Positions 20,763 to 46,037 of a DNA stretch of 64,000 nt are shown here, piece by piece (position 1 is the stretch's first letter; each line of letters begins with the position of its first letter). Position numbers and translations under genes: made by a program. Under the pieces are notes generated by a model that ran no database searches, was not told the DNA's origin, and worked only from the letters and a program-made list of their open reading frames with translations. Source of the stretch: Spiroplasma culicicola AES-1 (lineage in GTDB: Bacteria > Bacillota_I > Bacilli_A > Mycoplasmatales > Mycoplasmataceae); assembly GCF_000565175.1 (NCBI RefSeq), contig NZ_CP006681.1:434001-498000 (forward strand). The letters are read 5' to 3'.

Positions 20763-21674
20763 ATGTTTAGAAAAAGCTTATTTACATATCCAGGAAATAA
20801 ATTTAAGGTTTTAGAAGAAATTGCATCTTATGTAGATAAAGAAGATATCTTTTTAGACTTATTTTGTGGTAGTGGTGTAGTGGGGTTAAATATGCCCTGT
20901 AATGAAGTAATATTAAATGATATAAATAGTAATTTGATAGAAATATTAGATTTTTTTCATAAGAATTCAAAAGAAAAAATTATAGCTAGAATAGAAGAAA
21001 AACTTGAATACTTTAATCTTTCAAATTCTTATAGGAATGGTTTTAAATATTATAAGGAACAAGTTGAAAATAAAAATAATGGTTTAAAGGAATATAATAA
21101 GCAAAATTATAATATATTTAAGAATCATTATAACTTATCTTTAAATAAAGATGTTTTAGACCTTTTTATTTTAAAAACTTATGGTTTTAATAATGAAATA
21201 CGGTTTAATTCTGTTGGAGAATATAATATTCCTATTGGTAAAACAGATTTTAATCAAGCAACTGTAAATAGAATTGGCAGTTTCAAGGAATTATGTTCAA
21301 TAAAGAAAATAGAATTCTTAAATTATGATTTTGATAGTAAAGAACTAAAAAAATATATTGATAAAGCTACAGTTATATATATAGATCCCCCATACTTATT
21401 AACATTAGCAACATATAATTCAACATGAAATGTTGAGGAAGAACAAAGACTTATTAATTTTATGCAAGATTTAATTAATAAAAAGAAAAAAATAATTATT
21501 TCAAATATTTTAAATAGAGGTGAAAAATGTAACCAATATTTAAATAGCTTTATTAAAAAGAATAAATTAAATGTAAAAATAGTTGAAATTAATTATGCAT
21601 CGTCTAGTTATAATAAAATAAATAGGGGAATGAAAGATCTAGAGGTATTAATAGATAATTATGAATCCAAATAA
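20763..21674 (+). CDS. DNA adenine methyltransferase, D12 class (first of pair)
   Basis: 303 residues. Transfers methyl from SAM to N6 of adenine. SAM-binding motif I is DLFCGSGVVGLN (from residue 32) and catalytic motif IV is DPPY (208-211), in the alpha (D12) order. The N-terminal YPGNKFKVLEEIASYV is typical of D12 enzymes. It overlaps the second methyltransferase by 14 bases. Two D12 enzymes beside one nuclease suggest an asymmetric site with one enzyme per strand (compare the two fused halves of M.FokI). Begins two bases after ribF and marks the left edge of the defence island; ATA and AGA codons become common from here. Confidence 0.9.
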
Positions 21675-22707
21675 TAGAAGATATATAGGGAATAAATATA
21701 ATTTAAAAGATTGAATTTTTTCTGAGATAGAAAATTCCTTAAACCAAAATAATGATATTAATAAAAATTTTAAATTTATAGATGCCTTTTCTGGAACTGG
21801 TAGCGTAGGTTTAAAATTTGCGGATGAAAACTATGATGTCGTTTTAAATGATAATTTATATCATAATTTTTTAATTTATAATGCATTTACTGGAATTGAT
21901 AAAATTAATATGCCTAAAATGGAACAATTACTAGAAAATTATAATAATTATGATTATGCTGAAGGAAATAACAATCATTTCTCAAATTTATTTGGAAATA
22001 AATATTTTTCATTAGAAAATTCCTATATTATTTGAGAAATTAGAAAAGACATAGAAGAATTATATTCAGATAGTAAAATTAATTTTTATGAGTATAGCTA
22101 TTTAATTTCTGCTTTACTTTTAGCCACTGATAAAGTTGCAAATACAGTAGGCCATTATGAAAGTTTTTTAAAAAGAAGTGAAACTAGTAGTATAAAAAAA
22201 ATTAATTTAAAACATTTATCATTAAAAACTTATTATGTTAATTTTCAAATTTTTAATATGGATATTAATCAATTAATTCAAGAACAAAAATTTGATTATA
22301 ATTCAATTTTATATTTAGATCCTCCTTACAATGCTAGACAATATATAAATTTTTATCATGTTTTAGAATATATCTCAATTGGTAAAGAAAGTGAAATTTT
22401 TGAAGGCAATTCTATGAAGTTTAAGAGGGATCATTTAAAAAGTGAATATTCAAGATCTAAAGCCATTTATTATTTTGAAGAACTTGTGAATTATTCTTCT
22501 TCTAAATATATTATATTATCATATAATAATACATATAATGCTAGATCAACTGCTTCTAATAATAAAATGTCAGAAAAAGATATATTAAAAATCTTAAACA
22601 AGATTGGTAAGGTGAGCATTGTAGAAAAGGATTATGCATTTTTTAATTCAGGAAAGACTAAATTAAATGATCATAAAGAAAGGTTGTATATTTGTGTGAG
22701 ATACTAA
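21661..22707 (+). CDS. DNA adenine methyltransferase, D12 class (second of pair)
   Basis: 348 residues. N-terminal NRRYIGNKYNLKDWIF, motif I DAFSGTGSVGLKFAD (from residue 41), motif IV LDPPYN (D220). The C-terminal region has HERLYICVRY-like ending and IILSYNNTYNARSTA, common to D12 enzymes of type II systems. Overlaps both neighbours, so the MTase pair and the nuclease are translated from one coupled mRNA. The target sequence cannot be inferred. Confidence 0.9.
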
Positions 22708-24028
22708 AACTATAAGTAATTTAATAGCAAATATAACTAATAGTGATTTAACAACAAGACATAACAAGGGTAATACTCATATTTTTACAGAGTATCTAAA
22801 TACTAATAGAAGAAATTTCAGCACCTTAATACATTCAATGAAATTTATTATTAAAGCTGATGAAAATAAAAAACAGAAGTCTGGACAATCACGTTTTAAA
22901 CAACATGAACCCAGACTGAAATCCTTAAATTTTATTATTAAATTGGGTCAAGATAAGTTTCAAATTACAGAATTAGGTGAGGAATTTTTAAAATATATTA
23001 ATTATATTGAAACTCTAACATTAGGAGAGATAGAGTTTAAGATATTAAAAAATATATATTGCTTTTTAATATTATTTTCAAATTTAAATAAAAGAGATAA
23101 TAATTATTTTTTATCAGAATATTCAAAATTCAAACATTTTCTCTTGAAAGTTAATAGACAAGAAAAATTATTTGAAGATTTATGATCCATATATCTTAAA
23201 AATGGTGAAGAATTAACTGAAAAAGAATATATTGCGTTAATTAAAATTAGAATATATCCATTTTTAAAAGATGATTTAGATAAAGAATTTGCATCAGATA
23301 TTGATTGAAATCGAATAGTAGCAGAAAACCAAGATTCTATTTTATTTGAATTTAGTGACAGTTATCATATATCAACATTTTTTGCAGAAATACTAATTAT
23401 GTATTTTTTAGATCTTTTATTAAAAGGACTAGATTTTGATGATACATTGGAAAAAATATGCGAACATTTGGAAATAAATAATTCAGATATTATTTTCCAT
23501 TTAAAGGAAATAGTCTTTAATAGTAGTTTTACTTTAAATTTTTATGATGTAATAACTGAAAACATCGTGAATTATGAAATTAATAGAGATGATATAAAAA
23601 GACAATTAAAGAAAAATGTTAATAGTTATTTATCAAAGGAAAAACATAGAAATAACTTTAAAAAAATTAATGTTAGAGATAGAACATTATTTAATCAAAA
23701 TAAATACATTGTTAAAGAATTTTATGATTTTCAATGTTTCTTTGAAGAGAATTATAGCTGTCGTTATTTTAAACAGTATAATTCAGTGAAGAATTATGTA
23801 GAGATACATCATATAATTCCGCATTCTAAATCAGATAGTTTTAAAAATTCTATTGAAGTATTGGGTAATTATATTTCACTTTGTCCAAATTGTCATAAAC
23901 AAATTCATAATGGTACTAGAAATGATGTTGAGATGATGCTTAAAAAAATTTATGAGTTTAAACAGCAGGAATTAATGGAAGAAAATTTAGAATGCACATT
24001 TGAAATGTTAATGAGTTTTTTCTTTTAG
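22667..24028 (+). CDS. Type II restriction endonuclease, HNH family (probable)
   Basis: 453 residues. An N-terminal region of about 370 residues without recognisable motif (presumably DNA recognition) is followed by a C-terminal HNH nuclease. That domain has EIHHIIPHSKSDSF, then LCPNCHKQIHNG, giving the His-Asn-His/Cys-x-x-Cys zinc arrangement around residues 380-415. Start chosen at ATG 22667 with GGAAAG ten bases upstream; GTG 22694 with AAAGAAAGG is an alternative. Overlaps the second methyltransferase, which fits expression of modification before restriction. Confidence 0.8.
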
Positions 24029-24600: not shown

Positions 24601-24629
24601 TTGCAAAAAAAAAAAAAAAAATCTACAAT
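24601..24629 (+). promoter_or_regulatory. Promoter with 17-A homopolymer spacer (candidate phase-variable switch)
   Basis: TTGCAA at 24601-24606 and TACAAT at 24624-24629 are exactly 17 bases apart, and most of that spacer is part of an uninterrupted run of 17 A (24605-24621). A transcript would start near 24636, with a GGGGG RBS at 24645-24649 and ATG at 24655. Slippage in the A run would change the spacing and switch the DndC operon on or off. The same design controls vlp lipoprotein genes in Mycoplasma hyorhinis (literature knowledge). Confidence 0.7.
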
Positions 24630-24654: not shown

Positions 24655-26082
24655 ATGGAAAGAAAGGATCAATATTTATCTAAGGTTAGACATACCAAAG
24701 ATATTATTATTGAGGTTTATACAAAGAATAATTTTAATTGAATGGTTGGTTTTTCTGGTGGAAAGGATTCTACAGTTTTAGTTCAAATTATAATGGAAGC
24801 ATTGTTAGAGATTCCCAACATTTCTAATTTTGATAATATTATTCATATTGTTAGTTCTGATACATTAATTGAAAATCCTATTGTTTTAAAGCAATTAAAT
24901 ACTTCATTAAAATTAATAGAAAATTTTGCAATTGATAATAAATTACCAATAAAAGTACATAAGGTTGAACCCGATATTGAAGAATCATTTTGAGTTAATT
25001 TAATTGGTAGAGGTTATCCTTTACCAAATCAAAGTTTTAGATGATGTACAGATAGATTAAAAATTAAACCAATGAATCAAAAAATGGAAGAACTTTCACT
25101 AAAAAATGAAGTTTTAACAGTTCTTGGTGTAAGAAAAGGTGAATCTGCTTCAAGAGATATAAAATTAGTCAAGAATGATATTAAAGATTCCTTATTCAAG
25201 AAGAATGATACAAATAATAAATTAATATTTGCCCCAATTGAAGAATTCAGTCTATATGATATTTGAAGTTATTTAGCAGAATCGCGAATTAATTTTTTTA
25301 AAACAAATAATAATACTTTATCTTTACTTTATGAAGATTCTTCAGTTGGAGTTGAAGAATGCCCTTCAAGTTTAGATGACAAATTACAAAAAGGATGTGG
25401 AAATTCACGATGAGGATGTTGATTGTGTCCAGTAGTTACACAGGATAAATCATTAGAAGGCTTTGTAAACTCAGGACAAACTTGGTTAAAACCCTTATTA
25501 GAATTTAGAGAAGAACTTATTCAAGGTAGAGATAAAGTTTTAAATAGGTTTAATGCATCATTAAGAATAAGTAAAACCAGTAACAATATTTCTTTACTTA
25601 AATACAGATATATGGATTTAAAAATAAAAAATGATAATTATTTTTTACCTAAAAAACTTGGTAGAGATGAAATACGATTTGGATATTTTGATAAAAATAA
25701 AAATATATTGATTAATGATAAAAAAATAAAAGTTATTAGTGAAACAGAATATAAGAATTTAGTAGATACAAATATTATTGATCCTTATTCAAATTCTTGT
25801 GCAGAGGAAATATTTGAATATGTTATAAAACTAGATAAAAATAGTAATAATCAAATTCTTTCAGTTCCTGGTTTAGGACCTTATACGTTGAAATACAGAA
25901 AGGAATTATTAAAATCTATTAAAAAATTAAAAAGAGAAATGTCTAGTTATGATATTGAAATTATTTCAGATCAGGAAATTAAATTAATCGAAAAAATTAT
26001 AGTAAATGTAGAAAATAAATTAAATGAGAGGCATTTTAATATAACAAAAGAAGGAGAAAAAGTATATGAGTCAAGAATATAA
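24655..26082 (+). CDS. dndC: DndC-like PAPS-reductase-family protein (DNA phosphorothioation)
   Basis: 475 residues. In Dnd systems DndC is an ATP pyrophosphatase with an Fe-S cluster that helps place sulfur in the DNA backbone. PP-loop SGGKDST at 34-40; HIVSSDTLIENP; FWVNLIGRGYPLP; FRWCTDRLKI with C131; LGVRKGESASRDIKL; and CGNSRWGCWLCPVV with C248, C255 and C258, giving the four expected cluster cysteines. LLEFREEL follows. These blocks match DndC very closely. Unusually, no dndA, dndB, dndD or dndE is nearby; a MORC-type ATPase, Z1 and DUF4420 follow. Overlaps the next gene by 17 bases. Confidence 0.92.
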
Positions 26083-27847
26083 TGAAGAGATGGAAATTCC
26101 GCGTAGTAATAGGGAATATTTAGGCTATATTGATAAAACAACAGACCATATTTATATGTTGTCTGAATTTATAGATAATTCTATTCAATCTGCAAAAGAT
26201 CATAAATTTAAAAATGTAGAAGTAAAAATCTGTATTGATAAGAAAAAGGGAATTTTATATATTAGAGATGATGCGGGTGGAATTGCGTTTAAAAATAGAG
26301 GAATTGCCATTAAAAATGGAAAAGATGAGACCGAACAAGGAGATACTTTAAATATGTTTGGTGTTGGTATGAAAATGGCTTCTATATGATTTGGTAGGAA
26401 AATGACATTTTTTACAAAATCAGTTGAAGATGATTTTAGTTATTCTTTAACTCTAGATGTAGATAAATTGGAACACTCAGATTTTAAAGTTGAAGTTCAG
26501 AAGAACATTGATATTACATCAACATCAGGAATAGATTTTCTACATGAGCATGGAACAATTGTGAAAATTGAAAATTTTCATTTAAATGGTCCACATGCAG
26601 GTAGATATGATAAAAAAATGTTTGTTAAAGGCGATAAAAAAGATGGAAAAGCACTTGAAGAGCAAATAGCTTGTCGTTTTTCAAGATATTTAAAAAATCA
26701 TTTTTTAAGAATAACTTTTAGTTATATTGATGATAAAGGCCTAGAACAAATGGATGGTACAAAACCACTTGTTATTACAGAAAGTACAATTCCAAATTTA
26801 TATTTATCTCAAAAAGACAAAAATGATTATGAATATTTACAAGGTAAAAATGTTAAAGAGGCAACCTTTTATAAAAAGATTATGAAGGAAATCTATAATA
26901 AATATGAAAGCATGTTTGATAATGATATTGAATTTGGTGATTTAACTTATAGAAAGATAATTGAAACTTTTGAAAATCAAGAAGAATTTAAATTTAAAAC
27001 CAAAATTCAATTAGATGAAAAATTTAATAATATAAAAATCCCTTTTACTTTTGGATATATTAAAAAAGAAAGTGCTTTTATGAAATATACAGGTTTATCT
27101 GTTTATCAAGATGATAGAGCAGTAATATCAGGACCAAATACAAATAAAACAAAATTAACATGACTTACTTTTGATAAAGCACTATCAAATAAATCTGTAA
27201 AGGTAACACTGCGTTTTATTGGAGAAATTGATTTAAATAATAAATCAATGTTTAGAGTAGATAATAACAAAATGGGTTTTCATGGAACAGTAAAAGAAGA
27301 TATTGAAGAAATTATTTCTAGAAAATTTCAAAAACATTTGGCAGATCTAATTGATAAACTTTTAGATATTATTTTATATAAAGATGAACAACATGCATCT
27401 GATGAAGCTATAAGAATTGAAAATGAAAGATTTGCAAAAGAAATTAATAAACATAACATTTTAGAAAATTGTTCAGTTGAAACTGAAAATTTAAATGTAC
27501 ATGAAAATGATGGAGAAAGACCTGTTAATTCTTTTAAAGTATTAGATAAAGTAACAAATGAGTATAAATTTAATTTTATACATTATTTACAGGATTTAGA
27601 TGATCAAAGAAGAATTTTTAGAGCAAATGTAGAAGTAGATAATACAGAAGGCAAATATTTATATATTTTATTTGTAAACAAGAAATTTGTTGGCTTTAAA
27701 CCAACTATGAAAGATGAAGATTTTTCAGTATTAGTAAATCCGATTATTAAATTAATTATTCATAGTTTAAAAGATGTTAAAGATCATGAAGCAAGAGTTG
27801 AAAAATTTTATAATATAGTTGAAGTTATTCAAGGTGATGAAAAATAA
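26066..27847 (+). CDS. MORC/MutL-like GHKL ATPase (Mza-type)
   Basis: 593 residues. GHKL ATP-binding site: N-box LSEFIDNSIQSA (N38), G1 box RDDAGGI (68-73), G2 box GVGMKMAS (99-106). A transducer-like region follows and an acidic C-terminal domain about residues 400-593. Prokaryotic MORC/MutL-like ATPases next to Z1 and DUF4420 proteins were described as part of restriction-like operons and, with an AIPR protein, as the Mza defence system (literature knowledge). Likely senses or remodels DNA. RBS AAGGAG within the end of dndC. Two TGA Trp codons. Confidence 0.85.
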
Positions 27848-27848
27848 T

Positions 27849-29258
27849 ATGTTTAAATTTATAAAAGATTTAACTATTGAATATAGAAATAACTTTGTTG
27901 AAAATGATCACTATAAAAAATTGAAAAATAATTTTTTAGAATCAAATCCCCATTATATGAAAGATGCATATCGTGATGTTTATGAAGTAAATGTTAAAAA
28001 TACTTTAAGTGTTTTTAATGATGAATTAAAAAGAAGTAGTATCTTATTAGCTGGTGAAGTGCAATCGGGTAAAACAAATAATATGTTATTTATAACTGCA
28101 GCATTAATTGGTCTTGGTTTTAATAAAATTATTTATTTTACAGGTACAAAAAATAATTTAAACAAACAAAACATAAAAAGATTTAAAGATTTTTTTAAAG
28201 ATGCAGAATTTAAAGATTTTTCAAATGCAAAATCTTTATTTAATAATTCAAATAAGGTTGAGATATTTTATGGAATTAAACAAAATCTTGGAAATATTAA
28301 CTCGTTATTAAATGATATGGATATAAGTCAATATGAAAACTGAAATGTTTTAATTATTGATGATGAATGCGATGAAGCCTCATCTGAAAAAACTAAAGAA
28401 AATAGAACCGTTAATGCAAATATTTTAAAATTATATGAAACAAATTTTAAAAAAGTTGTTTATTTGCCAGTAACTGCAACACCTTATGCAAATTTAACTT
28501 CATTTACTGATGGTTTAGCACCAAATTATGTAATACCACTTGTTTCATCAACTTCATATTGTGGATTAAAAGTATTTTCTGATAATGACTTATATAAAAT
28601 TATAGATAAAAGTATTGTAGATAAAATTTATGCTAGGAATTTTGATGTTCAAACTGAAGAAATTTTTATGAAATATATAATTGATTTTTTAATAGAATGT
28701 TATCGAGATGAAAAGAATTATCAATTCCTTATCAATATAACTGTAAACACAACTCCAATAAAAGACTATGATAAATATATTAGAAAAATCATTTCAAAAT
28801 TAAAAGTTAAAAATAAAGCTTTTTATAATAATTTTATTGGAAATGATGAGTATATTAGTTTTAAGCAATGACTAGATAAATTAGAAGTTAAAATGATTAT
28901 TGAAGGTTTTGAATATATAAGAACAACTAATCCAGAAATAATAATTGGGGGCAATTTATTGTCAAGAGGTATAACTTTTGATGATCTAATTTATGAAATA
29001 ATGTTAAATCACTCTGAAAGTGGAATTTTTTCAAGTGATACTTTATTGCAACGTGCTCGATGGTTTGGATATAGACTTCGCTATATTTATAAGATGAGAA
29101 TTTATACATCTAATATTGGCTATAACTTTTACAACAATATTTATGAAATTGATACACGTATAAGAAGTTTATATGAAAATGATTATTCAAATTCTAAAGA
29201 TAAAATTATGCGAATAAAAGATATTTTTAAAGAATATTCATATAAATGAACAAATTAG
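27849..29258 (+). CDS. Z1-domain ATPase/helicase-like protein, short form
   Basis: 469 residues, about half the usual Z1 protein. Walker A GEVQSGKT (residues 69-76), DEAD-like box IIDDECDEASSE, VTATPYANLTS, and the Z1 signature GGNLLSRGITFDDL followed by LQRARWFGYR with the arginine finger. So the SF2-type motor core is complete while the C-terminal domains of longer family members are missing. Start set at ATG 27849, one base after the ATPase stop, with AAGGTGATG as RBS. Confidence 0.85.
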
Positions 29259-29269
29259 GAGAATAAAAT

Positions 29270-30232
29270 ATGAGCATAAATGATACAGATATAAATATTA
29301 TTGATCAAAAAAATGGATATATTTTTTTCACTACAACTGATGTTAAAAATTTTTATATTTTAAAACCAACTATGTATAATGCTTCTCTACCTAAATCAAT
29401 TAAACCTTTGAAAAAACCTAATTTTTCTTATTATCCTTCTGTGAATTCAATAACTAGTTTTCAAAAAGAAGATGCTAGAATTAGAGTTTTACCCAATTAT
29501 AAAGTTGCAATCGAATATAATGATAAAAAAATGGATGGAGAAGTTTTGGCATTTGAAAAAGGTATAAATATAAGAGTTGCTGAATTAATATATACAACAT
29601 TTATAAATACTCATGAAATAGCAAATTCAATGTTTGAGATTGTAAAAGAATTTGAAAATATATTTGGTCTTATTTGAAAAATTGATAAAAAATTTCAAAT
29701 AGGTTTAATTGGTGAATTACTTGTAATGCAAAAAAATGAAGATTATATAGACATTTTAATGGAAGGTTTTCATGGAGAAAATATAGCTGATAAAAATTTT
29801 GAATCAATTACAGATTTTGAACTAAAAACAAAAAAGGGAATAAAAAATATAGAAGTTAAAACTTCTATATCAAATGAAGGGCTATTTACATTAAAAAATA
29901 ATCAATTAAATACAAGTATTAATGATTATTTTGCAGCTGTTACTATAGAAATAGTTAAAAAAGGGGGTCAAACATTAATTGATTTAATCGATTGATATTT
30001 AGAACTTCCTTCCTTAAAAAGTGAATTAAAAAATATGTTTTTAGATTTGAAAGAATCACATGATAGTAGAAATTTATTAAGATTCGATCCAAGAACTGTA
30101 AAATTAAAATTTATTGATATACACAAATTACCAAAAATTCAAAATACAGATGATAGAATTAAAAATATTAAATTTCAAATTGATCTAAACCATTTTGAAG
30201 ATATCCAGTTAAAAAGCATTATTGCCTCTTAA
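29270..30232 (+). CDS. DUF4420 (PD-(D/E)XK-type) nuclease-like protein
   Basis: 320 residues. The C-terminal half carries GLIGELLVM, then SITDFELKTKKGIKNIEVKTS at about residues 180-202, giving Glu, Asp and E-x-K of a PD-(D/E)XK nuclease. This is the DUF4420/PF14390-type protein that accompanies MORC-type ATPase and Z1 genes. The N-terminal half is beta-rich. Last gene of the operon; its stop lies inside a 14-bp terminator stem. RBS TTAGGAG. No AIPR gene follows, unlike full Mza loci. Confidence 0.8.
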
Positions 30233-30250
30233 AAGTCAATAATGCTTTTT
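30211..30250. terminator. Bidirectional 14-bp terminator
   Basis: Perfect stem AAAAAGCATTATTG / CAATAATGCTTTTT between the DUF4420 gene and the convergent small gene. Confidence 0.9.
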
Positions 30251-30254
30251 AAAA

Positions 30255-30760: not shown

Positions 30761-31627
30761 ATGTATACAATTGAACAATTAAATAGTATTAAATTGAATT
30801 TTCACTTTAGTATGTTTTGCAATATGAGATGTAAATTTTGCTTTTATGCTCCATTGATTGCAAAAGCAAAACGTGAAGATAATTTAAACAATTGATTAGA
30901 AATAATTAAAAAAGTTGCCTTTTTTAAAGCAATTAACTTTGCAGGTGGAGAACCTACACTTTATTGAAATCAATTAAAACAAATGGCTAAACTATGTAAA
31001 GAATTAGGTCTTAAAGTTACTTTAATAACAAATGGAACAGTAATTAAAAATAAATCTCAAAATGAAGTAAATGATCTATTACAGTATTTTAATAGTGTGG
31101 GAATTAGCATGGATTCAATTGATTTAAATATAAACCAAAATTCAGGTAGAGCGATTGGCAATAAATCTGCATTATCTGAAGATGATTATTTAGAGGTTGG
31201 AGCAAAAATAAAAAAAGCAGGGTGTCAACTTAAAATTAATTCTGTAGTTCATTCTTTAAATAAAAATACAAGGATGATAGATTTTATAGAAAAAATTGAT
31301 CCATATAAATGAAAAATAATGCAAGTTAGTTCTGTTGGTCAAGAATTTCATAAGGATTTCATTATTTCTAAGTCTGATTTTGATAAATTTTTAGAAATAA
31401 ATGATATTAAAAATAAACATAGTTTTGTAAAATCAATTGAAGATGAAACTACTGTTACATCAACTTATGTGATGATTGATGGAGAGGGATATTTCTATAA
31501 TTCAGATCAAATATATAATAAGAATAATAAAAGTATTTTAAAAGAAAATGTAGATGTATTAGAAGAATTTAATAAATGTAATTTTGATATAAATTCTCAA
31601 TTAGATAGATATAAAAATGAAAAATAA
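30761..31627 (+). CDS. Prokaryotic viperin (radical SAM antiviral enzyme)
   Basis: 288 residues. Viperins convert nucleoside triphosphates to 3'-deoxy-3',4'-didehydro forms that stop viral polymerases; prokaryotic homologues protect against phages (literature knowledge). Radical-SAM cluster C20-x3-C24-x2-C27 in FCNMRCKFCFY, preceded by LNFHFS; INFAGGEPTLYW; LITNGTVI; ISMDSID; SGRAIGNK; CQLKINSVVHSLN; YKWKIMQVSSVGQEF; and the C-terminal ETTVTSTYVMIDGEGYFYNS. These match viperin block by block, including the C-terminal region absent from MoaA-like enzymes. No nucleotide kinase neighbour. Confidence 0.9.
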
Positions 31628-37518: not shown

Positions 37519-39468
37519 ATGGTTTATAACGAAGGGAATATAAAATCATTTTATGAAATTTTAGACAATAATAAAGATGAATATATATCTTCTTTTGATT
37601 TAAAAGATGTAAAATTATTTAATCTTAATTTGTCAAATTTGCATTTAAAAAATATTACATTTTGTAATGTGTATTTTTGAAAAGTAAATTTTGTCAATAT
37701 TATTTTTGAAGATTGTTTATTTGAAGACTGTATTTTTGAAGATACAACATTAAATTTTGTAACATTTGATAAAGATGAACTTATTAAAACCAAATTTTTA
37801 AACGCTAAGGGTAAGGTACTTAATATATTAGATACAATTTCTGAAGAATTGATTTTTGAATCTATTGGCATTGAAGAATTAAATATTGTAAATTCAAAAT
37901 TAGATATTTTTAATATTATTAAAAGTAATATAATTGAGTTTAAATTATATAGAAATAAATTTAATGAATTGTATTTAGAAAATAGCGTAATAGATTTAAA
38001 AATAAAAGAGTGTACTTTTATTCAATTAATTGCTAAACAAAATATATTCAATTACTTACTATTGAATAAAATTGTATTTGATATTGTAGATATTATAAAT
38101 AATACAGTGTATGATTTAAAAATATTTAATTCAAAATTTCTTAATAGTGAGTTTAGACAAAATTTAATTTTATTAACTAAAATAACAGAGTTACAAACTA
38201 GTAAAACGTTAGTTAAAAATAATATTATATTTTTAAATGAACTTAGAGATATTGATGAAAGAAAAGTATTACTTTTAAAATCTAATTATCAAGATTTTGA
38301 TCATGTGGACTTGTATAAAACTGGGGATAGATATTTGAATATTTATTTATTTGATAATCAATCAATTACTAAAAGTCTATTTTATTTAAGAGCTATTAAT
38401 ATCTATTTTTATGAAATTAAATCTAATTTTCAAAAATATAAAATAGTAAATGATCAAAATTTTATAGGATTATGAAAGAAAATATTTCTAGAAATTATCA
38501 ACATTAAATATAAAGAATTTAATGTTGAAATTGATTATTTTAATGAAGATATACAATATGATATTTTAAATTTATATGATTATTTAATTTTTGGAGACCT
38601 TGATTTGCATAAAAATTTAATGAAAAAAAGAAATAAATATATAATTGATGAAGATGTTGAAACAGACCAAAAAGTTCTAAAAGATGAATATGGATACAGG
38701 TCATCAATATACTATAAATATTCAAAAGGTTATGAAGATGATGAAGCTTTTGAAGAATATGAAGAAAAACAAATTCATTTTGATAAAGATAAAAAAGATA
38801 TTCTAGAAGAGAAAACAAATAATTGTAAAAAAGAGATATTGTCTAGGGAATATGGCTTAAAAAATGTTAATAATATCTTTAGTAAAAGAATTATGGTATT
38901 AACAATTGATCTGCATGGAACCAAAAATGATGTAGATTCAATATATAAAATTAATATGAGTATATTCTCGAATAAAAAACTTGTAGAAACTAAATATATT
39001 GTTTTTAAGCCTAAAAACTATGATTTATATCCAAATTCATATTTAAAGAGTTCTTTTATTGAAAAAAATGATAATCTTTCAGGGTTTGAATCATATAAAA
39101 AGTTAGAACATCTCCCAAAACTTGAAGATTTTATCAATGATATTTTAATTATTTTTAAAGATATTGATTATGTAATCACATATAATTCTTCGTATCATTT
39201 AAGAATATTTTTAAAAGCAATTGAACCTTATTGTGAAGTGTATATTAACTATTTTGATATATATACAATTGCAAAGTATAAATATATGGACAAAGATATT
39301 TCTAAAAAAATGTTTGATATTGCTCAATATTTAAGTATTACTTCTGATGAATTTGAAGGTGATTTTGGTAGAAATTTTACAATATTTAAGATATTTATAA
39401 ATTTATATTCTGAAAAAGAATATGAGGAAGTTTTTTATTTAAAAAAACATTATTTAAAAGAAACTTAG
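37519..39468 (+). CDS. Pentapeptide-repeat protein fused to a degenerate exonuclease-fold domain
   Basis: 649 residues. The N-terminal part (about 30-240) has a five-residue repeat, for example FCNVY-FWKVN-FVNII-FEDCL-FEDCI-FEDTT, predicting a right-handed quadrilateral beta-helix. A charged linker (about 360-440, many Glu/Asp/Lys) follows. The C-terminal about 200 residues have the DnaQ/DEDD layout: strand RIMVLTIDLHGT (D-x-H instead of D-x-E), DYVITYNSSYHLRIFL in place of HNxxFDxxFL, and INYFDIYTIAKY for the Dxxxxx segment. Key acids are lost, so it is probably non-catalytic. First gene of the second defence block; RBS GGGAG. Confidence 0.7.
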
Positions 39469-39501
39469 AAATATATAATATTTTTAAATTTTATAAACAT
39501 T

Positions 39502-39548
39502 AAACCTACTATAATGTACATTATTAATGTACAATTATGGTAGTTTTT
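39502..39548 (+). terminator. Long hairpin terminator, related to the one at 37368
   Basis: Arms 39502-39522 and 39526-39546 pair along about 20 bp with a small bulge on each side, followed by TTTTTTA. The outer part (CCTACTATAAT ... ATTATGGTAG) matches the outer part of the hairpin at 37368-37413. Lies 33 bases after the stop of the pentapeptide-repeat gene and 25 bases before the next start. Confidence 0.6.
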
Positions 39549-39571
39549 TATATTTGTGGGGGTATAAAGAT

Positions 39572-40342
39572 ATGCATGTAATTAAAAATGATAGTTATTT
39601 TTTTGCGTTTAATAAAAGAAGCGCCTATAACATTATAGAAAGATTTAAAAATAAAAGATTGGTGGTAATTGACTTTGAAGCTTTTCAGTTTCACATGAGA
39701 AATAAAAATAAATTTAAACAAATTACAATAAATGATATACCATATACAGTTTGTTTAAACACAATGACATTTAATTTTGATTTAAATCAATTTATTTCAA
39801 CAAACGAAAAAGTTTATCAATTTAGAGATGAATGAAGAAGTGAAAATGAATTATTATTAGAACTTGAGAAAATGGCTATTTTTATTGCAAATTATGTTAA
39901 AACTAATGAAATTGACTATTTTTTATTTATGGCAGATTTTTTAGAAAAACGAGCATTAGAATTTTTTGTTACTAAATTTGGTGCTGAAATTAACTTGGAT
40001 AAATACTTGAACATAAGGGGTTTTGATTTATATAGTGGTTTCTTTTTTAATGAATCAAATTTTAAAATTTTATCCTATAAACATAAAGTTCAAGACATGA
40101 TAAAAACTTTTATGTATAAAAATGGTGATGAATATGAAAATTTTGAAATCGGAAGAGATGGGATGAAACATTTTGAAGAAATTTTAAAAGGTAGAAATTC
40201 TGATGTATTAAATTTTGAAAAAGTAAAGAAACATAGCTGAATTGATTTACAGAAGGGTACTGAGTTAATGAATTATATTTGTCAATTAGCAAATTGACCA
40301 GAGGAACTAATTTTAAATATAGATTTATTAAAAAATGAATAA
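39572..40342 (+). CDS. DEDD exonuclease-like protein, family A copy 1
   Basis: 256 residues. Begins with a short basic segment then RLVVIDFEAFQF, a D-x-E as in exonuclease motif I. Residues about 105-130 (NEIDYFLFMADFLEKRALEFF) and GFDLYSGFFF correspond in order to exonuclease motifs II and III, but the catalytic Asp residues are not clear. Related to the gene at 46398, which has IIDIEAFSW and IIYFGGLLERKNFKF at the same places. Start at ATG 39572 with GGGGGT upstream; an earlier ATG lies within the terminator hairpin and was rejected. Confidence 0.6.
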
Positions 40343-40355
40343 AGAGGATAAAAAT

Positions 40356-42680
40356 ATGTATGTTAAAAAGTTTGAGAAAGCAAAATTTATTGAATTTCAT
40401 AATGGATATGAATGAAAATGAAAATTTGAATTAAATTCTGGAAAACACATAATTGTAGAACAAGGGGTTTTAAAATTTATTCTTGGACGTGTTCCTATTA
40501 AAAATGAAGAACTTTTATTAGAATTTAAAGTTAATCATATTGAAAACCCAAATGAATTAATTAAAATAAAAAGTATTTATTTGGTTCATGAATATAAAAT
40601 TAAAATTCTAACTGAAATGATAAGTGATATATTAAATCCAATTGGGATTAATCCATGAGATGTATATAACATATTAAAAAAAGTAGAACGAAAAATGTAT
40701 GCAAGTAATAGTGAGAGTTCTACTTCTTATAACTATTTTGTTAAGCAATTAGAGAAATTTGCACAAAATATTGAAAGTGAAAATAGAGATATAAAAACGG
40801 GAATCGATAAATTAATACCTCTAAAAAATAAAATTGAATCTATTAAAAAATATGAAAAAATGATTTTATTTTATTTAGATAATTCAATTAAACCTTTATA
40901 TATAAATCAATTATTGTTTTCTTTGAATTACCAAAAAATTGAATTTGATCTTTCTGATAATTTAATTAATTATATTACTAACTTTTTTTATGATCAACAC
41001 AATTATGATCTAAAAAATGAATTTACATATATTAATGATTTGTTAATCAGTTTAGGTGTTTTGGTTAATGATAAACTTAGAATGGCTTATGAAATGCGAT
41101 ATCTTTGTACTTTGAAAGCATTTGATACTGGAAATACTTATTTAGAAAAAGATGAATTTAATTCATTATTCGAATATAAATTATTATTTGAAAATAGAAA
41201 TGAAATAACTCAAACATTATTCAATAAAAAATGAATTATAGAAGAGAATAATGTAATTTTTGAAAAATTAATCTATATACAAGAAAAAAGTGTCTCTGAA
41301 AAATTGGTTCATTTTCTTATGGAAAATAATGAATTAACTAATAATTTAGATGAATTTTTATTTAATAAAACAATTGAAGAAATAAAATTGTCTGATGAAC
41401 AAAAAGAAGCTTTAAAGTTATTTTCAAATAATAAAATACTTTTAATAAACGGTGGCGCTGGAACTGGAAAAACAACTGTTATAAAAGCTATGATTGAATT
41501 ATTTTTAAAAGCTTATCCAATGTCTTCTAAAAAAATATTTGTTGCAGCTCCAACAGGGATGGCTGCAAATAATATTAAAGAAAAAATGAATGATGATATA
41601 TTTAGGAACACTAAAATTGGTACAATTCATTCAATTCTTGAAGCAATTGATTTCCATACATTTATGAGAAATGAAAATAACAAAATTGAAGCTGACTTAT
41701 TAATTGTTGATGAATCATCAATGATTAATTTATTTGCATTTTATAGTTTATTTAAAGCAATTCCAAATACTATTAAAAGAATTGTGTTCATTGGAGATAG
41801 CAATCAATTACCACCAATTGAAGTTGGTAATGTTTTTGAACAGATGGTTAATTTTGATTTCATACCAAAAGTAACTTTAAAACAAAATCATAGGCAATTA
41901 AATGGTAAAGGTATTATTGAGTTATCACAAAAAATATTAAGCAATGATCTTAATAGAACAAATGTTTATGAATTTATTGATTCATTAAAAAAATATTCAG
42001 ATATTGAAATGATGTTTGATATCAAACCTGATGAATTATATGAAATGATGTATGAAAAATACAGTGTACCAAAAGAAGAATACATTCAACAAAAATTTCA
42101 AATAATTACTCCAGTCACATCTTCAGAAAAAGAATATTCTTATAATGATTCAAAATTAAATACAAAAATTTCAAATAAAATAAATACTGATAAAAAGTTT
42201 CATAAAAATATTAAATTAAATGATAAAATAATGATTTTAAAAAATGATAATAATATTGAAATTTATAATGGACAATTGGGATGAATCAATCCAAAAGAAA
42301 ATAAAATAGATGATGTAATATTTTATAATATGAAAATGAAAAACAAAGATTTACCTATATTTGATAATTCAAATCAAATATATACTTTTGCTTCATCTTC
42401 AACAGTTCAAATGAAATTGGCCTATGCAATAACTGTTCATAAATCTCAAGGAGGAGAATTTGATGAGTTAATGTATTGTGTTGAAGGCAAAACAAGTAAT
42501 GAAAGATTATTTCACAATAAAAGAATGGCATATACTGCAGTAACACGAGCAAAAAATAATCTAATTCTTTGTGGAAAAAAGGAAGTTTTTGTTGAACAAA
42601 TATTGACAAATTTTAAAAATATAAAATCAATGATGATTTATTTTATCAATAATTGTTTAACAGTAAAAGAAGGAGAATAA
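40356..42680 (+). CDS. RecD2-like SF1B DNA helicase
   Basis: 774 residues. N-terminal about 340 residues include an OB-like start and helical region similar in layout to RecD2. The motor: Walker A NGGAGTGKTT near residue 366, APTGMAANNI (motif Ia), TIHSIL, LIVDESSM (motif II), IGDSNQLPPIEVGNVFEQM (motif III), LKQNHRQ (motif IV), ITVHKSQGGEFDELM (motif V) and AYTAVTRAKNNLIL (motif VI). Predicted 5'-3' DNA helicase. RBS AAAGAGGA. Followed two bases later by an OB-fold gene, so a helicase and a possible ssDNA-binding protein are co-expressed. Chromosomal RecD2 copies normally sit elsewhere. Confidence 0.88.
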
Positions 42681-42682
42681 TA

Positions 42683-43021
42683 ATGAATTTATTTATTGGG
42701 ATTGGAAATATTTCAAATATATCTGAATTAAAAATAGCTAAAAATAATCAACCATTTGTAAATGCAACATTATGAACAACAAATATTGGTGCTGAAAAAT
42801 TACAAAAACAAATCATGGTGATGTTTCAATCATTTGGAAATATTGCATATGAACTTGAACATATTAAAAATGATATTACTAAAACTGATGAATTCTTAGT
42901 AATTGGGTTTGCAAATATATCTTCAAATTTTAAAGGTATAAGTATAGAAAAAATTATAAAAATAAATGATAAAACTGATATTAACAATTTCTTTGAAAAT
43001 GAATTATGGAAAATATTATAG
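42683..43021 (+). CDS. Small SSB-like OB-fold protein
   Basis: 112 residues. The N-terminus MNLFIGIGNISNISELKIA followed by NNQPFVNATLWTTN follows the beta-1/beta-2 pattern of single-stranded DNA-binding proteins (MNxxxLxGxLxxxPELxxxxxGxxVxxxxLAxxR). No acidic SSB tail (it ends FENELWKIL). RBS AAGGAG. Overlaps the next gene by 16 bases. Probably coats or hands over single strands for the neighbouring helicase; inference. Confidence 0.55.
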
Positions 43022-43500
43022 ATATAAATGTTTTATTTAATAAATATAAATTGAAATATCCTATTAGTGAGATTAACCAAAAAATTAATCAATTAGTATT
43101 GGATAAAAAAATATATTTATTAAATAATGCAAAATTTTCGTATTCTTTTATTAAAGAATACGAAAAAAATGAAGAAAAAATAAATGATTTTGTTAATAAA
43201 ATCTTAGAATACAGTTACTTTGCTACATTTGTAGACGATAGTCTTTTAAGAAAATATTGTATAGATCTCTATGAGTTTATACATACAGTACAAAAAAAAG
43301 ATTATAAATTTGAAATATATGGAAATATTATTACTAAAGGATGTAAAATACATATTTGAAAAGAAAATAAATTATCTTTTGAACAAGTTATGAAAATAAT
43401 TGAAAACTATGATGAAGAAAAACAATGTGAAATACTAAAAAATGAGTATTTTTCATCAAAATTTGAATATTCAAAATATATAGAAGGAAGGTTTAAATAA
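43006..43500 (+). CDS. Unknown protein between OB-fold and Z1 genes
   Basis: 164 residues, helical and charged, no signal or membrane segment. N-terminal MENIIDINVLFNKYKLKYPISEINQKINQL resembles a winged-helix-like start. Overlaps both neighbours (stop TAA shares a base with the next ATG), so it is strictly coupled with the OB-fold and Z1 genes and likely belongs to their complex. No family recognised. Confidence 0.6.
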
Positions 43501-46037
43501 TGACAAATAATGCTGAAACAATATATAAACAGTATTTAGCTTTGGAAAATTTTAATATGTTTTCAAAAGCTGAAATTATTGATAAATTAGCTATTAAATT
43601 TGAATTACCAAAAGAGCAAATTTTAAAAATAGTATCTGAGGATCCAAATAGAAATATTTTTAATTTTAAAAATTCAAAAATATTAAAATATAAACCAATT
43701 GAGGAATTGGAATTAACAAATTTTACAAATTATTTACAAGGTTTAAATAGAAATTATATTGATTTAAAAAACCTTAAAGAAGAAACTGTTGATATTTTAA
43801 AACAAATTAGTGTTGCTGATGAGGTTGAAGAATTCAAAATTAAAGGATTAGTAATTGGAGATATTCAGTCAGGTAAAACTTCTTCAATGGTTGGTTTGAT
43901 TAATGGAGCTTTTGATATAGGTTATAAATCAGTAATACTTTTATCTGGTTTAATTAATGATTTGCGTGAACAAACAAGTAAAAGGTTAAATCAAGGTTTT
44001 GGTGTTGAAAAAGATGAAATTAATTCTTGATTTGATTTAGAAAAACAAGACATTGTAAATCAAACAATAGATGGAGAAATTTCAAAATCAAATTCAACAC
44101 GTTATATGTTAAACGAAACTAAAAAAACATATTGAGTAACTAAAAAAACAGTTCCTATTTTAAAAACACTAAATTCTTTATTTGATCAATATCATGAGTT
44201 TTCACTTAAACCTACAAGCGATGGCAAAGAATCTGATTTAACTAAAACATTAAACTCAAAAATATTAATAATTGATGATGAAGGGGATTTAGCATCTCAA
44301 GATGCTTCTTCTGCTTCTTCAGAAAATGTTACAAAAACAAATGCATTAATAATTGAATTGATGAAAAAATTCAAAAAAGTTTCTTATGTTTCTTATACAG
44401 CAACTCCGTTTGCTAATTTATTAACAGATAGAGATAAAACTCATGAGGGAGAAACATTATTTCCTGATAAATTTATTTCGTTAATTACACCAGGAATAAA
44501 CTATACTGGTTTTTCTAAGTTTAATCGTTTATATTCAGAGTTTAATAGTGTTAAATTTCTTAATGAAGAAAAACTAAAAGAATTTAAAAATGATAATTTT
44601 ATAGATTTTGATAAATACAATGATTTTATTGAGACCATTAAAGTATTTTTATTTACAACAAGTTTATTCAAATTAAACGAAAATTCAATGGTTGTAGAAA
44701 ATGAATATTTTAAAACAATGTTAATAAACATTGACATAAAAAATGATAATCAAATTCTTTTTAGAAATCATGTTCAAAATATTTTAATGCAAATTAAAAA
44801 AGAATTTATGTTTAATACTGAAAGTTTTAAAAATGAATTAGAACAAATTATAAAAGATAAATATTTTAATTTATATTACTTATTTATTGAAAAATTTAAT
44901 TTTGACTTTTGAAATACTTTTGAACATGTTTTAGATAATGCGGAAATTAAAATTGTTAATAAAGATAATATAGATTCAAAAGTATTTGAAATTGAAACTT
45001 CAAAGATTGAAAAGATACAAATAGTAATTGGGGGATTCAAATTATCAAGAGGACTTACAATTCCTGGACTATTCACAACTGTATTTTGAAGAAATACAAA
45101 TACTTTTGACTCTGCAATGCAAATGTGTAGATGATTTGGTTATAGAGATAATTATTTGGAATACATAACTGTATTTACAACTAAAAAAGCTTGATCAGAT
45201 TTCTACAGTATGTTTGAAACATATGATGACTTTAAAAAAGAAGTTACGTTCCAAGAAGAACAAGGCCTAAGTGCAGATGAATTTATAATAAAAATTAGTT
45301 CTGCTCACAGATTATTACCTACAAGTAAAAATAAAATGAAGGGTGCTGATAAAATATATGATAAATGATCAAAAACTGGAAGAAATCAAATCTATAATTA
45401 TGATTTAGATGAAAAAATTTTGGAAAATAATTTAAATGTCTTGAGTGAATGAACAAAAGAGATAGAGTTTACAGAATATAAACATAACTTTATAGCACAA
45501 AACGTAAAATTTAATAATATTAAAAACTTACTTGAAAACCTAACTTTTGAAAATATGGCAAAACAAAAAATTGATAATCATTGTATGATTTTTGATAAAA
45601 ATCAATCTGATAAATGAGATGTTGTAATTAAAAATATTCATAGTAAAGCAAATGGTATACATTATTTAAATGAAAATATATCAATCAATTTAAGTAAAAA
45701 AAGTTTTGTTTGAAAACATATTGATAATAAAAATATTGCTCATGTTAGAACAATTTTAACAACTGATTTTGAAAATTATTTTTTTGATTTAGAAGATAAT
45801 AATGTTAACAATCAATATGAATTTAAAAGTAAGTTATTGGATTTAAATCATCCTGTGTTGTTTATTTCATTACTGAAATTTGTAAATGAAGTTGAGGATG
45901 AAAATAATCAATCACAATTGCCAGTAGTAGCAATTGCATTTTATAATCCGCATGAAAAGGAAATATATAAATCAAATAAAATTGTTTATATAAATACTTC
46001 AGGCCAAGAAATTACTGAGGAAGAAATTTTATCTTAA
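43500..46037 (+). CDS. Z1-domain ATPase/helicase-like protein, full length
   Basis: 845 residues. Walker A VIGDIQSGKTSSM near residue 120-130, ILIIDDEGDLASQ, YTATPFANLL and the Z1 signature IVIGGFKLSRGLTIPGL with MQMCRWFGYRDNYLEY, plus about 300 further residues typical of long Z1 proteins. Contains five or more TGA Trp codons. It differs strongly from the short Z1 at 27849 (they share only the core motifs), so this is a separate system. No MORC-type ATPase or DUF4420 is adjacent. Confidence 0.88.

What the first reader, a model, noticed from the sequence alone, without database searches (positions are those of the whole stretch)
24655..30232. DndC joined to a MORC-type ATPase, Z1 and DUF4420: a hybrid of phosphorothioation and Mza-like systems
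The four genes overlap or abut and share one promoter and terminator. DndC is convincing at all motifs, yet no dndA, B, D or E is present, and the rest are the MORC/MutL-like ATPase, Z1 and DUF4420 proteins of Mza-type loci, without AIPR. DndC could supply the self-mark where other loci use a methyltransferase, or be repurposed as a sulfur-handling effector.
Basis: partly seen in the sequence, partly recalled or inferred. Interest (0 to 1): 0.88.

Follow-up and report, generated by a model that had tools for sequence, protein, structure and literature searches.

The report
Sulfur-marking enzyme in a MORC restriction operon
A family of tiny wall-less bacteria carries a four-gene operon in which DndC, an enzyme known for putting sulfur into the DNA backbone, sits where related operons carry a DNA methyltransferase, and has lost its docking site for its usual partner, so this is probably an unrecognised sulfur-based restriction system.

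Summary
Read with genetic code 4, 24655-30232 holds four intact overlapping or abutting genes: DndC, a MORC GHKL ATPase, a Z1-domain SF2 helicase and a DUF4420 nuclease, ending in a strong hairpin terminator. The complete genome has no DndB, DndD or DndE and no second DndC. In all 320 held genomes of the order, DndC occurs in eight (three genera); in 8/8 it lies in a MORC-Z1-DUF4420 operon, in two gene orders, and the three genome-wide Dnd searches are negative in all eight. In the phylum sample the same core otherwise carries a 5-methylcytosine methyltransferase (18 loci), never both. Outside the order, 76 of the 80 nearest DndC loci are DndD-linked and none has Z1. The eight DndCs form one clade (100/99) and keep the PP-loop, five cysteines and DNA-specificity loop, but lack the whole segment that binds DndD, present in 76/76 canonical DndCs. 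Best reading: a restriction-modification system of the known MORC/Z1/novel-nuclease type whose methyltransferase was replaced by DndC, parallel to BREX type 4. It is not Dnd and not Mza. Whether phosphorothioate is really made, and how without DndD/DndE, needs mass spectrometry.

The parts
24601..24629 (+). candidate sigma-70-like promoter (TTGCAA-17-TACAAT) before dndC
   Evidence: 9/12 match, not above chance, so weak
24655..26082 (+). dndC-like gene (475 aa): PP-loop sulfurtransferase with SGGKDS, specificity loop GYPLPNQSFRW, Cys131/236/248/255/258; lacks the DndD-binding C-terminal segment
   Evidence: TIGR03183 325 bits > 290; PF01507; alignment with 76 canonical DndCs
26066..27847 (+). 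MORC-type GHKL ATPase (593 aa): EFIDNS, DDAGGI, GVGMKMA, MORC-specific S5 motif GLSVYQDDRAV
   Evidence: PF13589 3.5e-11; motifs; matches the GhXhhpXXRhl motif of PMC2292703
27837..29258 (+). SF2 helicase with C-terminal Z1 domain (473 aa): GEVQSGKT, DECDEAS, ATPYA, DTLLQRARWFG
   Evidence: PF10593 2.3e-15, PF04851 5.8e-9; motifs; the ORF finder also allows an upstream TTG at 27819
29270..30232 (+). DUF4420 predicted PD-(D/E)XK nuclease (320 aa), E-D-ExK motif (GELL ... TDF ... IEVK)
   Evidence: PF14390 1e-7; motif conserved in all DndC-linked homologues aligned
30209..30252 (+). hairpin terminator (16 + 2 bp stem) overlapping the DUF4420 stop
   Evidence: -17.5 kcal/mol, z -6.2, 0 of 200 shuffles as stable

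Best explanation
A restriction-modification system in which the self-mark is a sulfur on the DNA backbone instead of a methyl group. Shown: the operon, its recurrence, the slot exchange with an m5C methyltransferase, intact catalytic motifs in all four proteins, absence of DndB/DndD/DndE from the genome, and loss of the DndD-docking segment. Inferred: a housekeeping cysteine desulfurase charges DndC's iron-sulfur centre; DndC reads a short motif with its specificity loop (Asn-Gln-Ser, closest to the Asn-Gln-Thr class that PMC12193691 assigns to G-ps-ATC) and puts phosphorothioate into host DNA; the MORC ATPase and Z1 helicase clamp and move along unmarked DNA and drive cleavage by the DUF4420 nuclease, as the Z1 helicase N.CglI drives R.CglI (PMC4267653). 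Least certain is how DndC works without DndDE: either alone, like a methyltransferase, or on the MORC/Z1 machine.
For: (1) Recurrence: 8 of 320 genomes of the order have DndC, 8/8 in MORC-Z1-DUF4420 operons, in 3 genera and two gene orders, with gaps from -80 to +30 nt. (2) Slot exchange: in the phylum sample the same core carries an m5C methyltransferase in 18 loci, one of them in this very genome (L240/L259); none of the 8 DndC loci has one within the 18 kb examined, nor has this 64-kb window. (3) No DndD, DndE or DndB in any of the eight genomes, while the searches ring in canonical genomes. (4) The segment equal to E. coli DndC 433-482, whose L458/E462/R471 mutant loses DndD binding (PMC12193691), is present in 76/76 DndD-linked DndCs and wholly absent in 8/8 here; the numbering check matches at 11/11 positions. 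PADLOC profiles agree: the MORC-linked DndCs tested align mostly to about position 365-388 of 468-481 and canonical ones to 457-469. (5) All five cysteines, the PP-loop and the specificity loop are kept in 8/8. (6) The eight form one clade, 100/99. (7) All eight genomes have a cysteine desulfurase.
Against: No measurement of phosphorothioate. Every characterised PT writer needs an ATPase plus a DNA-binding or nicking partner (DndD+DndE, or SspC+SspB), and DndC alone has not been shown to modify DNA. MORC and Z1 are present in m5C versions too, so they may be purely restrictive and leave DndC without a helper. Loss of the DndD segment also fits a DndC with another substrate. No PT-reader domain was recognised in the operon, though non-recognition of marked sites would not need one.
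Confidence: 0.62

Rival explanations
1. DndC in these operons modifies something other than the DNA backbone (a base, a nucleotide pool, tRNA or a protein partner) and works as a sulfur-transfer effector or regulator of a MORC-Z1-DUF4420 abortive system.
For: The DndD-docking segment is gone and DndD/DndE are absent; PP-loop enzymes thiolate many substrates (general knowledge).
Against: [quoted passage not shown]
Confidence: 0.17
2. Phosphorothioate is made, but MORC-Z1-DUF4420 is activated by the mark or by its loss in a suicide response (SspE-like sensing), rather than cleaving unmarked foreign DNA.
For: Layout B (G028, G080, G084) and the G137 locus carry a DUF262/GmrSD_N protein, weakly related to SspE where tested, and a DUF262 gene also abuts a canonical dndCDEA locus in G536.
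Against: Four of eight loci, the window included, have no DUF262 gene in the operon; the core with an m5C methyltransferase has ordinary R-M architecture.
Confidence: 0.13
3. Decayed Dnd system: DndC is a leftover of a lost dndBCDE operon that happens to lie beside an unrelated MORC operon.
For: Dnd genes are often incomplete in genomes (PMC10853773).
Against: 8/8 carriers in 3 genera share the linkage, in two gene orders, with overlapping reading frames and intact catalytic residues, and form one clade.
Confidence: 0.04
4. Canonical phosphorothioation with unrecognised, very divergent DndD/DndE supplied in trans from elsewhere in the genome.
For: Profile searches can miss very divergent proteins.
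Against: TIGR03185 and TIGR03184 found nothing in this genome or the seven relatives except one 16.8-bit chance match, and the DndC has no DndD-binding segment.
Confidence: 0.04

Closest known systems
Type-3 MORC restriction operons of Iyer, Abhiman and Aravind 2008 (MORC + SF2-Z1 helicase + novel E-D-ExK restriction endonuclease, often with an m5C methylase)
   Same: Same three-gene core with the diagnostic motifs GhXhhpXXRhl, DThhQXuRhFG and E-D-ExK.
   Different: The DNA methylase is absent and DndC takes its place.
Dnd phosphorothioation (DndABCDE)
   Same: DndC family above the equivalog cut-off; same five cysteines, PP-loop and specificity loop.
   Different: No DndB/DndD/DndE in the genome, no DndD-binding segment; PMC10853773 treats DndD+DndE as an obligate core and puts apparent absences down to poor assemblies, which does not apply to this single-contig genome.
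BREX type 4
   Same: A PAPS-reductase-family sulfurtransferase replaces the methyltransferase of a restriction-like system (PMC12839542).
   Different: None of the island proteins scanned was assigned to PglZ, BrxC or BrxL; the enzyme here is DndC, not the divergent BrxP. A BrxP-like PAPS reductase is, however, paired with the same MORC core in G229 and G364.
Ssp (SspABCD)
   Same: PAPS-reductase sulfurtransferase working with a non-DndD ATPase.
   Different: No SspB (DUF4007) match, though that search had no positive control; P0001 matches SspD at 40 bits against 347 for DndC.
Mza (MzaABCDE)
   Same: GHKL ATPase and Z1 protein, distantly related.
   Different: Scores far below equivalog cut-offs; no AIPR found.
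CglI / NgoAVII (M, R, N proteins; N = DEAD-Z1)
   Same: Z1 helicase as the ATP-driven motor of a restriction complex (PMC4267653).
   Different: m5C methyltransferase, PLD-type nuclease, no MORC.

Membership tests
Dnd phosphorothioation system | DndC sulfurtransferase | tested here: met
   TIGR03183 325 > 290 bits; five cysteines and PP-loop
Dnd phosphorothioation system | DndD ABC-ATPase and DndE | tested here: not met
   no match in this single-contig genome; controls ring
Dnd phosphorothioation system | DndD-binding C-terminal segment of DndC | tested here: not met
   0 residues in 8/8 against 46-50 in 76/76 canonical
Dnd phosphorothioation system | cysteine desulfurase (DndA or housekeeping substitute) | tested here: met
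   Aminotran_5 at G000:C1:894941-896059, 366 bits, not in the operon
Dnd phosphorothioation system | phosphorothioate in host DNA | not testable with these tools
   needs LC-MS/MS or iodine cleavage
MORC type-3 restriction operon (Iyer 2008) | GHKL motifs plus MORC-specific GhXhhpXXRhl | tested here: met
   EFIDNS, DDAGGI, GVGMKMA, GLSVYQDDRAV
MORC type-3 restriction operon (Iyer 2008) | SF2 helicase with DThhQXuRhFG domain | tested here: met
   DTLLQRARWFG; PF10593 2e-15
MORC type-3 restriction operon (Iyer 2008) | linked nuclease with E-D-ExK | tested here: met
   DUF4420 motif conserved
MORC type-3 restriction operon (Iyer 2008) | DNA methylase (frequent, not universal, in that class) | tested here: not met
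   no m5C methyltransferase in the 64-kb window; the neighbouring D12 N6A pair lies outside the operon and is absent near G249, G084, G028 and G137
Mza | MzaB and MzaC at equivalog level, AIPR protein | tested here: not met
   27.9/850 and 54.7/1500 bits; no AIPR domain in the island proteins scanned
BREX type 4 | PglZ, BrxC and BrxL with a PAPS reductase | tested here: not met
   none assigned among the island proteins scanned; not searched genome-wide
Ssp | SspB (DUF4007) | tested here: inconclusive
   no match, but no control rang

The most novel reading that the evidence does not exclude
A further class of DNA phosphorothioation machinery: a DndC that has shed its DndD dock and inserts backbone sulfur with a MORC GHKL ATPase and a Z1 helicase in place of the DndD-DndE (or SspC-SspB) scanning engine, so that one complex both writes and enforces the mark.
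Probability: 0.3. Interest if true: 0.92.

Novelty: new variant of a known kind. Interest (0 to 1): 0.8.

Why it matters
The current comparative-genomic view holds that phosphorothioation by Dnd proteins cannot exist without the DndD-DndE pair (PMC10853773). Here a clade of DndCs in single- or two-contig genomes is uncoupled from that pair, has lost the docking segment and is bound instead to a MORC restriction core. If it still writes phosphorothioate, a two-part question becomes directly testable in a four-gene, 5.6-kb operon: what is the minimal PT writer, and can prokaryotic MORCs take part in reading or writing DNA marks. It also suggests that the modification slot of MORC-Z1 systems is exchangeable (m5C methyltransferase, DndC, BrxP-like), as in BREX.

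Tried and rejected
Mza membership: rejected on scores and no AIPR. PADLOC 'MTase_II' PDLC03333 hit on DndC as a hint of a known R-M annotation: rejected, canonical DndCs score higher on it, so the model is simply DndC. PAPS-reductase genes on plasmids not called dndC (Alkalihalophilus H55, Malaciobacter H60): no Z1, MORC or DUF4420 annotated next to them. Viral contigs: many DndC-like genes, none beside Z1. Z1 and MORC trees to count swaps of the modification gene: DndC-linked cores fall in three places, but starred branches force only one change and two long branches meet, so no count is claimed. Plasmid searches with Z1, DUF4420, MORC and the BrxP-like protein: only weak hits or none. PDB sequence searches: nothing useful. 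Structure prediction was not run: it would not decide the question. Literature: no held paper found that joins DndC with MORC/Z1 or phosphorothioation with Spiroplasma; the library lacks preprints and most subscription journals.

Full report
WHAT IS THERE. The window uses genetic code 4: in table 11 the genes are broken by TGA, in table 4 they are open. Four genes lie on the + strand: dndC 24655-26082 (475 aa), a MORC-type GHKL ATPase 26066-27847 (593 aa), a Z1-domain SF2 helicase 27837-29258 (473 aa) and DUF4420 29270-30232 (320 aa). Neighbours overlap by 17 and 11 nt and are then 11 nt apart. A 44-nt hairpin (-17.5 kcal/mol, z -6.2) covers the DUF4420 stop. A promoter candidate at 24601-24629 exists but such matches are no commoner than chance. 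So an operon is well supported by layout; the single promoter is not shown.

THE FOUR PROTEINS. DndC passes the NCBI equivalog cut-off (325 against 290 bits). MORC has the GHKL motifs and the S5 motif GLSVYQDDRAV, which fits the GhXhhpXXRhl signature that Iyer et al. give as specific to MORCs. The helicase has GEVQSGKT, DECDEAS, ATPYA and the Z1 motif DTLLQRARWFG, which fits their DThhQXuRhFG. DUF4420 keeps the E-D-ExK nuclease motif (GELL, TDF, IEVK) in every DndC-linked homologue aligned (the G137 DUF4420 gene looks frame-broken and was left out).

NO DND SYSTEM ELSEWHERE. The genome is one 1,175,131-base contig with one DndC. DndD (TIGR03185), DndE (TIGR03184) and DndB (TIGR03233) give no match in it or in the seven relatives described below, except a 16.8-bit DndD chance match in G137; the same searches find the genes in canonical genomes. 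A housekeeping class-V aminotransferase of the cysteine desulfurase type is present (366 bits).

RECURRENCE. A profile of the DndCs searched over the 320 held genomes of the order finds eight carriers in three genera. All eight have DndC in a MORC-Z1-DUF4420 operon: layout A, dndC-MORC-Z1-DUF4420 (window genome, G074, G272, G249, G137), and layout B, MORC-Z1-DUF4420-dndC-X-DUF262 (G028, G080, G084). Outside the order the picture is the opposite: of the 80 nearest DndC loci returned from a scan of 84,980 species, about 76 are DndD-linked by profile, the rest are cut, prophage-borne or unclear, and none has Z1 nearby. The non-mollicute DndC genomes of the phylum and class samples (G174, G184, G218, G234, G237, G374, G536) all have DndD next to DndC.

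SLOT EXCHANGE. DUF4420 was used as an anchor in 392 genomes of the phylum. Eighteen Z1-DUF4420 loci, with a MORC-like ATPase in most, carry an m5C methyltransferase, including a second locus in the window's own genome (G000:C1 about 774-784 kb, L240/L259). An m5C profile built from seven of them rings in 14/14 of these loci tested and in none of the eight DndC loci, nor anywhere in the 64-kb window. Two further loci (G229, G364) carry a BrxP-like PAPS reductase instead. Thus the same core takes an m5C methyltransferase, DndC or a BrxP-like enzyme; in BREX type 4 the same replacement of methyltransferase by PAPS reductase is accepted (PMC12839542).

LOSS OF THE DNDD DOCK. In E. coli B7A DndC, residues 433-482 are predicted to bind the DndD globular domain, and the mutant L458D/E462A/R471A loses DndD binding in pull-downs (PMC12193691). 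An E. coli DndC read from L261 agrees with the published numbering at all eleven positions checked. In an alignment of 76 DndD-linked DndCs (E. coli plus 75 loci) and the eight MORC-linked ones, the segment is present in 76/76 (46-50 residues) and absent in 8/8 (0 residues). All eight keep the five cysteines equal to C146, C262, C273, C280 and C283, and the specificity loop GYP-x-P-xxx-FRW. PADLOC profiles show the same independently: two canonical DndCs align to position 457/468 and 469/481 of their best models, the MORC-linked ones mostly stop near 365-388. Total length does not show it, because the mollicute proteins share a mid-protein insert with Bacillales DndCs. On the shared core the eight form one clade with 100/99 support, which fits one ancient uncoupling.

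MECHANISM. Most likely a restriction-modification system whose self-mark is phosphorothioate. Shown: operon layout, recurrence, exclusivity with m5C methyltransferase, intact active-site motifs, missing DndB/D/E, missing DndD dock. Inferred: DndC charged by the housekeeping desulfurase, motif reading by the specificity loop (Asn-Gln-Ser here and Asn-Gln-Thr in G137; PMC12193691 assigns Asn-Gln-Thr to G-ps-ATC), and restriction by an ATP-driven MORC/Z1 complex that activates DUF4420. CglI/NgoAVII give an experimental precedent for Z1 helicases as motors of a restriction complex (PMC4267653). The weak point is that every characterised PT writer uses an ATPase and a DNA-binding or nicking partner; either this DndC acts alone, as a methyltransferase would, or MORC/Z1 serve it.

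LIMITS. No phosphorothioate was measured. The genome scan outside the order returned only the best 80 of at least 484 relatives, so more divergent hybrids in other phyla may exist. Eight loci share ancestry, so 8/8 is not eight independent events, though two gene orders and about 33-62% identity show long maintenance. The library held no paper joining DndC with MORC or Z1, but it lacks preprints and most subscription papers.

Noticed in passing
window 30761-31627 (+): A prokaryotic viperin (NF038283 234 bits, cut-off 180; PADLOC pVip 6e-64) follows the operon downstream, so the operon sits in a defence island.
   Followed up: partly
window 20763-24028 (+): Two D12-class N6-adenine methyltransferases and an HNH-domain protein, probably a type II R-M cassette; a similar cassette lies on the other side of the operon in G074 (L009:3957-7216). 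Not part of the DndC operon.
   Followed up: partly
window 37519-46037 (+): A second candidate defence cluster: pentapeptide-repeat fusion protein, a 271-aa protein, RecD-like helicase (40335-42680), two small unknown genes and a second, longer Z1 protein (43500-46037, MzaC-like 187 bits but far below the cut-off).
   Followed up: partly
G000:C1 about 774-784 kb (L240, L259): The same genome has a second MORC-Z1 locus with a decayed DUF4420-like protein (motif lost), a DUF262-type protein and a divergent m5C methyltransferase.
   Followed up: yes
L013:10427-16031; L239:2051-8017: MORC-Z1-DUF4420 loci paired with a BrxP-like PAPS reductase rather than DndC; in L013 an apparently frame-broken m5C methyltransferase lies 6 kb upstream.
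   Followed up: partly
L137, L151 (viral contigs), L063 (prophage-like region of Kroppenstedtia): Solitary phage-type DndCs without DndD nearby that also lack the DndD-binding segment but keep all five cysteines; L136 keeps the segment.
   Followed up: partly
L279:256-6445: Canonical dndCDE plus a DndA-like desulfurase directly beside a DUF262/GmrSD-type gene, the same domain that follows dndC in layout B.
   Followed up: no
PADLOC model PDLC03333: Labelled type II methyltransferase, but canonical DndCs match it at 337-381 bits: apparently a mislabelled DndC model.
   Followed up: yes
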